From contig NZ_JAQVKA010000003.1 of the NCBI RefSeq assembly GCF_028694895.1, positions 1 to 61,528 of the forward strand: DNA of 61,528 bases, in the 5' to 3' direction. The stretch is from Sulfurimonas sp. Lineage in GTDB: Bacteria; Campylobacterota; Campylobacteria; Campylobacterales; Sulfurimonadaceae. Of this stretch, positions 52,689 through 55,039 are shown piece by piece. Within the stretch, counting starts at the first letter, position 1; each line of letters opens with the position of its first letter. The position numbers were made by a program, and so were the translations under genes. The notes under the pieces were generated by a model. It was given only the letters and a program-made list of their open reading frames with translations. It ran no database searches and was not told where the DNA came from.

Positions 52689-53237
52689 ATGATAAGACTT
52701 GCTTCATCATCACCCACTAGAGCAAAACTTCTGCAAAGCGCAGGGATAGAGTTTGTGCAAGAGTGTGTTGATTTTGATGAAGACAAGATTATCGCTACTT
52801 CTGCAAAAAACTTTGTTTATAAAGCAACTCTTGGAAAATTTGAAGCAAATCTAAAGGCATTTGGATACGAAGATTTTCCTCTTTTAGTTGCTGATACAGT
52901 TGTTACTTCTAGTGGTCAAATACTTAGAAAAGCAAGATGTGCTGATGAGGCACGAAATATCTTAATGACACAGAGCCAGAGTGTTACTAGCATCATTACA
53001 TGTATGATTTTTCAGTCATGTGAGATGAACATTATTGATATATCTAAGACTGAGTATCTTTTTGATGCCTTTGATATGAATGATGTTGAGAGTTATCTCT
53101 CTAGCGGAGAGTGGCGCGGTAAAGCTGGGGCTTGTATGGTTGAGGGCTTTTGTAAAAAGTATATCAAAAGTACAAAAGGGTATGAGAGTACCGCCATGGG
53201 TTTAAATACAGATCTTCTAAGGAGATTCCTATTTTAA
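52689..53237 (+). CDS. maf: Maf-like nucleoside triphosphate pyrophosphatase
   Basis: A 182-residue Maf/Ham1-superfamily protein that hydrolyses non-canonical or specific nucleoside triphosphates, once called septum formation inhibitor. LASSSPTRAKLLQSAGIEF, KATLGKFEAN, PLLVADTVVTSSGQILRKA and the C-terminal GEWRGKAGACMVEGF are the family motifs. Whether it is of the YhdE or YceF subtype is not decided. It begins directly after the previous stop and overlaps the diguanylate cyclase frame. Confidence 0.9.
   Translation: MIRLASSSPTRAKLLQSAGIEFVQECVDFDEDKIIATSAKNFVYKATLGKFEANLKAFGYEDFPLLVADTVVTSSGQILRKARCADEARNILMTQSQSVTSIITCMIFQSCEMNIIDISKTEYLFDAFDMNDVESYLSSGEWRGKAGACMVEGFCKKYIKSTKGYESTAMGLNTDLLRRFLF
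53219..53224 (+). promoter_or_regulatory. Ribosome site pointing to an ATT start codon
   Basis: AAGGAG, six bases before ATT at 53231, within the end of maf. No ATG, GTG or TTG follows at a suitable distance; the next in-frame one is TTG 53369. Confidence 0.5.
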
Positions 53238-55039
53238 AACTTAACAAATTTTATTTTATTGAGACAATTGTCGCAGCTCTAATCATCTTAGTAGCACTCC
53301 TTTATGTCAGTTTTATCAGCAATGAACAAGATAAGATAAAAGAGCAGAGCTATCAAAAAGAGGCCTCTTTGATGAGAGAACAAGTAGAGAAGATGATTGT
53401 CTATAAACAAAAGGGCACACTTGCTATGGCTTTTGCAATAGCAAATGACAAATCTCTAGCGGATACAATTTTAAGTAATAATATGCAAAACGATTATTAT
53501 GATGATATCATCTCAAAATTCAGTGCAAATGGCTTGTATAAGAGAAGTTGGATGCAGATTTTAGATAAAGATTTAAACCCTATTTATAGTAGTTTTAATA
53601 GACAAAATAGTGTAGAGTTAAACAGTGTAAGAGAAGATTTGATGGAATCATCTGCGCTTGAGAAACCTATAATGTCTATAAGTGTAGGAAATTATAATCT
53701 ATGTATGCGCGCAATAACTCCAATAATAAAAAATCATAAATTTATCGGTTTGATAGAAGTCTCTTCAGGATTTGACTCAATCTCTTCGCAGATGAAAGAT
53801 ATAGGGATTGACTCTGTAGTAGTTTTAAGTAAAGAGTATAAAAACGCTCTTAAAATTCCTTTTACTAAGATGTTTATAGAAGATTATTATATAGCTAATA
53901 TAGATGCGCCTATTACGCTTATGGGGTACTTAAGAAGAAATGGTGTTCATAACTATATACACACATCACAAAAGTTTGAAAACGGTTATATTATAAGCAC
54001 TTTTCCTCTTAAAAATATTCAAAATAGGGTTATTGGACACTATATAATGTTTAAAAAACAAGAGGATGTTTTAAATATTAACCTAGATTTTTTTATGTAT
54101 AAGTGGTTTAGTATTGCAATAGTCGCTTTTATGATAATGGCTAGTATCTTTGGAAACTTTGCATTTTATAGAAATAAAAGACAGAAGATGTACTATAAAA
54201 ACATCATTGACTCATCTTCAAATATCGTGATGGTAGTTGATAAAGAGCGTATTATCGATGTGAATAAAACATTTTTTAAATATTTTAATGAGTTTGATAC
54301 TCTAGAAGAGTTCAAAGCAGAGTATCAATCTATCTCTGATTTTTTTGCTCAAGAAGATGGATGTATAGATGAAGATATGGATGGTGTAAGCTGGCTTGAG
54401 TATCTAATGAAAAACCCAAGAAATAATCTTGTAAAAATTCTCTATAATGAAAAAGAGTACTACTTTACTGCTAGTATCTCGCTAATAGCAGAAGATAACG
54501 CTCATTACAGTGTGATTTTTACTGATGTAACAGAAGAGAAGATTTACCAAAAAGAGTTAGAACATACAAATATTACTGATCCTCTAACAAAGATTAGAAA
54601 TCGCTACTACTATAATGAGCAGATAAAAAAAGAGAGTGCAAGCTCAAACAGATACTTCTATCCTCTCTCATTAGTTATCTTCGATATGGACCATTTTAAA
54701 AAGATTAATGATAACTATGGACATGACGTTGGTGATAAAGTTCTAATTGAGTACACAAAACTTATAACTACATACTTAAGAGATAGCGATATATTTTGCA
54801 GAATTGGAGGAGAAGAGTTTGCTCTTATCCTTCCACACGTAAACAAATCAGACGCCTATAAAATAGCTGATAAAATTAGAATGAAAGTACAAGAGTATAA
54901 AAAGATACTTCCTATTACTATGAGTTTTGGTGTAACAGAGTATGTAAAAGGTGAAGATTTAGAAGTCACTTTTAAGCGAGCAGATAAAGCTCTATATGAG
55001 GCAAAAAATGCTGGAAGAAACAAGGTTGTTGTTAGATAA
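53231..55039 (+). CDS. Membrane diguanylate cyclase (sensor-PAS-GGDEF)
   Basis: A 602-residue c-di-GMP synthase if it starts at ATT 53231. That start follows AAGGAG by six bases and adds a membrane helix (about 10-29, IVAALIILVALLYVSFIS). The next ordinary starts, TTG 53369 and ATG 53372, would remove this helix and leave the sensor on the wrong side. Order: helix, periplasmic Cache-like sensor (about 35-285), helix (about 290-314), PAS-like (about 320-440) and GGDEF (about 450-602). The active site is GGEEF at 526-530, with an intact RxxD inhibitory site at 517-520. It overlaps maf by 7 bases and the next gene by one. Confidence 0.85.
   Translation: MLKLNKFYFIETIVAALIILVALLYVSFISNEQDKIKEQSYQKEASLMREQVEKMIVYKQKGTLAMAFAIANDKSLADTILSNNMQNDYYDDIISKFSANGLYKRSWMQILDKDLNPIYSSFNRQNSVELNSVREDLMESSALEKPIMSISVGNYNLCMRAITPIIKNHKFIGLIEVSSGFDSISSQMKDIGIDSVVVLSKEYKNALKIPFTKMFIEDYYIANIDAPITLMGYLRRNGVHNYIHTSQKFENGYIISTFPLKNIQNRVIGHYIMFKKQEDVLNINLDFFMYKWFSIAIVAFMIMASIFGNFAFYRNKRQKMYYKNIIDSSSNIVMVVDKERIIDVNKTFFKYFNEFDTLEEFKAEYQSISDFFAQEDGCIDEDMDGVSWLEYLMKNPRNNLVKILYNEKEYYFTASISLIAEDNAHYSVIFTDVTEEKIYQKELEHTNITDPLTKIRNRYYYNEQIKKESASSNRYFYPLSLVIFDMDHFKKINDNYGHDVGDKVLIEYTKLITTYLRDSDIFCRIGGEEFALILPHVNKSDAYKIADKIRMKVQEYKKILPITMSFGVTEYVKGEDLEVTFKRADKALYEAKNAGRNKVVVR

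What the first reader, a model, noticed from the sequence alone, without database searches (positions are those of the whole stretch)
53219..53374. Probable ATT start codon on a membrane diguanylate cyclase
A perfect AAGGAG (53219-53224) stands six bases before ATT at 53231. The frame from there is open through the GGDEF gene and adds a clear membrane helix. No ATG, GTG or TTG occurs in this frame between 53186 and 53369. Starting at TTG 53369 or ATG 53372 would delete the first membrane helix of a two-helix periplasmic sensor. ATT starts are rare (infC and pcnB in E. coli) and are usually tied to low or regulated expression; overlap with maf by 7 bases suggests coupling.
Basis: partly seen in the sequence, partly recalled or inferred. 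Interest (0 to 1): 0.6.

Follow-up and report, generated by a model that had tools for sequence, protein, structure and literature searches.

The report
Conserved AUU start codon, diguanylate cyclase
A membrane sensor that makes the bacterial signal molecule c-di-GMP almost certainly begins at the rare start codon AUU. Relatives across the genus Sulfurimonas keep the same odd start, so it is real and selected rather than a sequencing quirk, although AUU starts as such are already known from a few bacterial genes.

Summary
TAAGGAG (53218-53224) stands 6 nt before ATT 53231. The frame is open from 53186 to 55039. No ATG, GTG or TTG precedes TTG 53369 / ATG 53372, which would remove the first membrane helix and the start of the dCache_3 sensor domain. 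ATT is very probably the true start. In 11 further orthologues (37-71% identical) and two paralogues that lost the sensor domain, the same ATT stands behind a Shine-Dalgarno-like sequence, followed by TTA/TTT and AAA/AAG. Two more carry ATT or ATC one codon later. Twelve of 12 aligned sequences use ATT here, while every other conserved isoleucine column mixes ATT, ATC and ATA. In several, an in-frame stop lies 3-5 codons upstream, so the start is bracketed. Orthologues with ordinary starts place ATG or TTG at or beside this spot. The 7-nt maf overlap exists only in the window and its two closest relatives, so coupling does not explain the ATT. A scan of a complete relative's genome found two other conserved isoleucine-codon starts: ATA on a histidine kinase (also in this genome) and ATT on truD. 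AUU starts are known (infC, pcnB, Borrelia pncA, S. aureus cvfC1). Reduced or IF3-sensitive translation is inferred, not shown.

The parts
53218..53224 (+). Shine-Dalgarno sequence TAAGGAG, 6-nt spacer to ATT
   Evidence: the 16S 3' end of the complete relative reads ...GGATCACCTCCTTTCT; duplex -8.2 kcal/mol
53231..53233 (+). ATT (AUU) initiation codon
   Evidence: conserved in 11 further orthologues and 2 dCache-less paralogues
53231..55039 (+). dCache_3-PAS-GGDEF diguanylate cyclase, 602 aa from ATT
   Evidence: Pfam PF14827, PF13188, PF00990; GGEEF with an RDSD I-site five residues before it is read directly in the translation
53252..53320 (+). transmembrane helix 1 (about residues 8-30), lost if translation began at 53369/53372
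   Evidence: hydropathy 2.65; AlphaFold helix 2-71
53348..54058 (+). dCache_3 periplasmic sensor domain (residues 40-276)
   Evidence: Pfam; Foldseek matches to DctB and other dCache sensors
53369..53374 (+). alternative canonical starts TTG 53369 and ATG 53372 (residues 47, 48), inside the long N-terminal helix
54107..54169 (+). transmembrane helix 2 (about residues 293-313)
54572..55024 (+). GGDEF domain (residues 448-598)
52689..53237 (+). maf (Maf-like nucleotide pyrophosphatase), its end overlaps the cyclase start by 7 nt

Best explanation
Translation of this dCache_3-PAS-GGDEF diguanylate cyclase starts at AUU 53231, directed by the Shine-Dalgarno sequence TAAGGAG six bases upstream and read by the initiator tRNA, so the protein begins with (f)Met-Leu-Lys-Leu. 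This start supplies the first membrane helix and the continuous stalk helix into the periplasmic dCache domain. The AUU is an old, selected feature of this gene in Sulfurimonas. It has been exchanged several times with AUG, UUG or GUG, and its most likely effect is a lower, initiation-factor-3-sensitive level of a c-di-GMP synthase. The start site is well supported by comparative sequence; the effect on expression is inferred from other bacteria.
For: Sequence facts. ATT at the same place with an SD-like sequence in 12 aligned dCache-bearing sequences, the window included, plus two dCache-less paralogues (L018, L019); ATT or ATC in L054 and L061. 12/12 ATT in that column versus mixed ATT/ATC/ATA in all 8 other conserved Ile columns; ATT is about 39% of Ile codons in the relative. 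In-frame stop only 3 codons upstream in L052 and 5 in L043, L044 and L080, which brackets the start. In L080 the nearby ATG of its near twin L043 is ATA, so that alternative is not kept. The second codon is TTA in nine and TTT in three, which argues against TTA as the start. Orthologues with ordinary starts have ATG at that position (L051) or TTG one codon later (L045, L046, L048, L056) and keep the helix. AlphaFold model: one helix from residue 2 to 71 (mean pLDDT 85.9), which a start at residue 47/48 would cut in the middle. dCache_3 begins at residue 40. Two more conserved Ile-codon starts show that the lineage uses them: histidine kinase ATA (ATC in one) in 14 genomes including the window's own; truD ATT in 15. 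Reporter precedent: S. aureus AUU/AUA starts with strong SDs give roughly 10% of AUG expression (PMC13009471).
Against: No peptide, ribosome-profiling or reporter data. Some ATT orthologues have a TTG, ATG or GTG 6-14 codons further on (L043, L044, L047, L050, L052, L084), which would cost only part of the N-terminus there. L019 has an in-frame ATG seven codons upstream. Reduced or IF3-dependent expression was not tested, and infC itself starts with TTG here, not with ATT.
Confidence: 0.9

Rival explanations
1. Translation starts at TTG 53369 or ATG 53372, giving a cyclase with one membrane helix; the upstream reading is a leftover.
For: These are the first canonical starts in the frame, and automatic annotation would choose them.
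Against: No AAGGAG-like sequence stands at a proper distance before them. They cut the predicted helix 2-71 and the first part of dCache_3. The upstream 46 codons score as coding and correspond to a membrane helix kept in about 40 orthologues, many with a canonical start at that end.
Confidence: 0.05
2. The start is UUA 53234, the codon after ATT (aligned with TTG in some orthologues).
For: TTG-start relatives L045, L046, L048 and L056 have their start aligned with this codon; the spacing of 9 nt is tolerable.
Against: In L047, L050 and L099 this codon is TTT while the ATT is kept. UUA differs from AUG at two positions, so it should initiate less well than AUU (general knowledge). The AUU spacing falls at the peak of the spacing distribution of ATG starts in the relative (aligned spacing 3-4).
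Confidence: 0.03
3. The gene has no start of its own and is made by ribosomal -1 frameshifting out of maf, or depends on maf through the 7-nt overlap.
For: Overlap of 7 nt with maf in the window, L041 and L042.
Against: In other ATT-start copies maf ends 1-92 nt before the ATT, or maf is absent upstream; in-frame stops separate the frames in L043, L044 and L052. The hairpin over the SD is no stabler than shuffled sequence (z -0.5) and is not shared. Coupling as an added effect in this one clade is not excluded.
Confidence: 0.01
4. Sequencing or assembly error: the real codon is ATG.
For: The window comes from a draft assembly of 159 contigs.
Against: The same ATT stands in many independent genomes, one of them a single 2,201,561-bp contig.
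Confidence: 0.01

Closest known systems
E. coli infC and pcnB (AUU starts)
   Same: AUU start behind an SD; single-gene exceptions in a genome of ordinary starts (infC described in PMC5472188; pcnB as Binns and Masters 2002 in the reference list of PMC13009471).
   Different: Different gene class: membrane c-di-GMP synthase. No autoregulation is expected, and infC here uses TTG.
S. aureus infC (AUA), cvfC1 (AUU) and ccpN (AUA), PMC13009471
   Same: Conserved AUU/AUA starts with strong SDs within one genus; roughly 10% of AUG expression in reporters. Same pattern as the cyclase (AUU) and histidine kinase (AUA) here.
   Different: Experimentally mapped there, comparative only here; different phylum and genes.
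Borrelia burgdorferi pncA/BBE22 (AUU), PMC13398362
   Same: AUU start missed by annotation, whose true N-terminus is needed for the fold.
   Different: Proven by genetics and crystal structure.
Streptomyces sigR (GTC start, IF3-repressed), PMC5472188
   Same: Non-canonical start on a signalling gene that holds its level down.
   Different: GTC, with IF3 dependence shown; IF3 dependence not tested here.

Membership tests
AUU-initiated bacterial genes | AUU in frame at a proper distance behind an SD | tested here: met
   TAAGGAG, 6-nt spacer, ATT
AUU-initiated bacterial genes | No usable canonical start that preserves the protein | tested here: met
   First TTG/ATG at residues 47/48, inside the helix 2-71
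AUU-initiated bacterial genes | Non-canonical start conserved in relatives | tested here: met
   ATT in 11 further orthologues plus 2 paralogues; ATT/ATC in 2 more
AUU-initiated bacterial genes | N-terminus or initiation mapped by experiment | not testable with these tools
   No proteome or ribosome profiling data at hand
IF3-regulated genes (infC, sigR type) | Expression changes with IF3 level or fidelity | not testable with these tools
   Inference only
infC-type autoregulation | infC itself carries a non-canonical start | tested here: not met
   infC starts TTG in the window's genome and in the complete relative
dCache_3-PAS-GGDEF diguanylate cyclase | GGDEF domain with intact GG[DE]EF motif | tested here: met
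   PF00990 E 6e-44; GGEEF, RDSD I-site
dCache_3-PAS-GGDEF diguanylate cyclase | Periplasmic dCache between two membrane helices | tested here: met
   PF14827 residues 40-276; helices 8-30 and 293-313; fold like DctB and other dCache sensors
dCache_3-PAS-GGDEF diguanylate cyclase | Makes c-di-GMP | not testable with these tools
   Not assayed

The most novel reading that the evidence does not exclude
Sulfurimonas keeps isoleucine-codon (AUU/AUA/AUC) starts as a standing device that holds down, and ties to initiation-factor-3 activity, the level of a small set of proteins: this cyclase, a membrane histidine kinase (AUA) and TruD (AUU), in a lineage whose infC has an ordinary start.
Probability: 0.2. 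Interest if true: 0.65.

Novelty: new member of a known kind. Interest (0 to 1): 0.45.

Why it matters
Standard gene finders accept only ATG, GTG and TTG, so they would call this cyclase and its relatives without the first membrane helix, with a wrong topology for a periplasmic sensor. Few bacterial genes with AUU starts are documented. A start conserved over a genus on a signalling enzyme, together with an AUA kinase and an AUU truD in the same lineage, gives natural test cases for what non-canonical starts are for. Natural orthologue pairs that differ at the start codon (L052 ATT versus L048 TTG; L046 TTG versus L051 ATG) make the question testable.

Tried and rejected
One search failed through wrong strand coordinates (repeated). 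A crude first scan admitted too many internal codons and showed no enrichment of ATT; it was replaced by a stricter scan without any upstream canonical start. The own-genome 16S 3' end was not found by pattern; it was taken from the relative. mRNA hairpin over the SD: no stabler than shuffles and not shared, rejected. Frameshift from maf, and maf-overlap coupling as the general cause: rejected. infC as an ATT-start partner: it starts TTG. A full-text search for Sulfurimonas with AUU and start codon gave no paper; a search with Campylobacter and Helicobacter gave two papers that, judged by their abstracts, are not about AUU starts.

Full report
WHAT IS THERE. The window lies in a draft genome (G000, 1.89 Mb, 159 contigs). 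Named relatives that carry the gene are mostly Sulfurimonas (Campylobacterota). At 53218-53224 stands TAAGGAG, then ATTCCT, then ATT at 53231. The frame is open from 53186 to the stop at 55039 and has no ATG, GTG or TTG before TTG 53369. From the ATT the protein has 602 residues: membrane helix 8-30, dCache_3 40-276, membrane helix 293-313, PAS 321-354, GGDEF 448-598 with an intact GGEEF motif. It follows alaS, a small membrane gene and maf, and precedes an aminotransferase resembling 8-amino-7-oxononanoate synthase (identities of the neighbours other than maf are by reading, not tested).

IS IT MORE THAN CHANCE. Of 2603 ATT triplets on both strands of the window, 4 have AAGGAG 4-9 nt upstream, and a scan of the window for an SD followed by a coding-like extension lacking canonical starts returns only this locus. 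The spacing of the ATT matches the commonest spacing of ATG starts in a complete relative (aligned spacing 3-4).

COMPARATIVE TEST. Orthologues were collected from 135 genomes of the genus, relatives outside it and named genomes. The start regions were read codon by codon. ATT behind an SD-like stretch, followed by TTA or TTT and AAA or AAG, is found in the window, L041/L091 (S. crateris), L042, L043/L092, L080/L119, L044, L047/L093, L050/L097, L052/L095, L053/L094, L084, L099, and in two paralogues that have lost the dCache domain but kept the start and first helix (L018, L019). L054 has ATT and L061/L103 ATC one codon later. In 12 of 12 aligned sequences the codon is ATT, while all eight other conserved isoleucine columns mix the three codons; ATT is about 39% of isoleucine codons in the relative, so 12 of 12 would have a probability near 1e-5 if the rows were independent, which they are not fully. 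In L052 an in-frame stop lies three codons before the ATT, in L043, L044 and L080 five, so the start is bracketed. Orthologues with ordinary starts carry ATG at the position (L051), TTG one codon later (L045, L046, L048, L056), or ATG/GTG near it, and keep the helix. On a tree of 41 orthologues built without the start, isoleucine-codon and canonical starts change at least 7 times, so the ATT is widespread and repeatedly exchanged rather than one recent mutation.

THE ALTERNATIVES. TTG 53369 / ATG 53372 are residues 47 and 48. The AlphaFold model (mean pLDDT 85.9) has one helix from residue 2 to 71 that runs from the membrane into the dCache domain, and dCache_3 itself begins at residue 40; a start at 47/48 would cut both. 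TTA 53234 as start is contradicted by TTT in three orthologues that keep the ATT. Frameshifting from maf is contradicted by copies in which maf ends before the ATT or is absent. The local hairpin over the SD is not better than shuffles and not shared.

WIDER PATTERN. The complete relative (one contig of 2,201,561 bp) was scanned for coding extensions with an SD and no canonical start. About nine loci remain of 2055 frames. Three are convincing and conserved: this cyclase (ATT); a membrane histidine kinase, AAGGAGTCGGTT-ATA, with an in-frame stop just upstream, ATA in 13 genomes including the window's own (L277), ATC in one, and ATG behind the same AAGGAGTCGGTT in a more distant homologue (L293); and truD, AAAGGAGCTAAA-ATT in 15 genomes (families). 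For truD a second reading is possible (ATA four codons later, aligned with ATG in others).

HOW IT LIKELY WORKS. Shown by sequence: SD, codon, conservation, topology. Inferred: the initiator tRNA reads AUU and the protein starts with methionine; initiation is weaker than from AUG. In S. aureus, AUU and AUA starts conserved with strong SDs gave about 10% of the AUG reporter signal (PMC13009471); a Streptomyces GTC start is repressed by IF3 (PMC5472188); Borrelia pncA starts at AUU and was mis-annotated (PMC13398362); ATT at infC was found by peptides in Xanthomonas (PMC5559785). A low level of a c-di-GMP synthase is a plausible benefit but was not tested. infC in this lineage starts with TTG.

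VERDICT. It is a new, genus-wide conserved member of a known kind. Coupling to maf is at most a local extra. The most interesting extension is that isoleucine-codon starts recur in Sulfurimonas on at least three genes.

Noticed in passing
L277 (own genome, G000:C42:8848-9987 +); L276 (G065:C1:916995 +): Membrane histidine kinase whose only start that keeps the first helix is ATA (AAGGAG, 6-nt spacer, ATA GAG TTA ACA) with an in-frame stop 12 nt upstream in both; ATA conserved in 13 genomes, ATC in one (L279), ATG behind the same SD in a distant homologue (L293).
   Followed up: partly
L246-L260 (for example G065:C1:1412826 -): truD with a probable ATT start (AAAGGAGCTAAA-ATT-TCT/TTT-ACA) conserved in 15 genomes; an ATA four codons later aligns with ATG in other species.
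   Followed up: partly
L018 and L019 (G021:C30, G005:C7), behind maf: The cyclase lost its periplasmic dCache domain in these genomes, joining the first helix almost directly to the second, while keeping 70% identity in PAS-GGDEF and the ATT start.
   Followed up: partly
G065:C1:1432283 -: MATE transporter frame with GAGGT 6 nt before ATT and no canonical start for 34 codons; weaker candidate.
   Followed up: no
L070 (own genome, infC): infC starts with TTG (GAGGTAAATTT-TTG), so the classical AUU autoregulation of IF3 appears absent in this lineage.
   Followed up: yes
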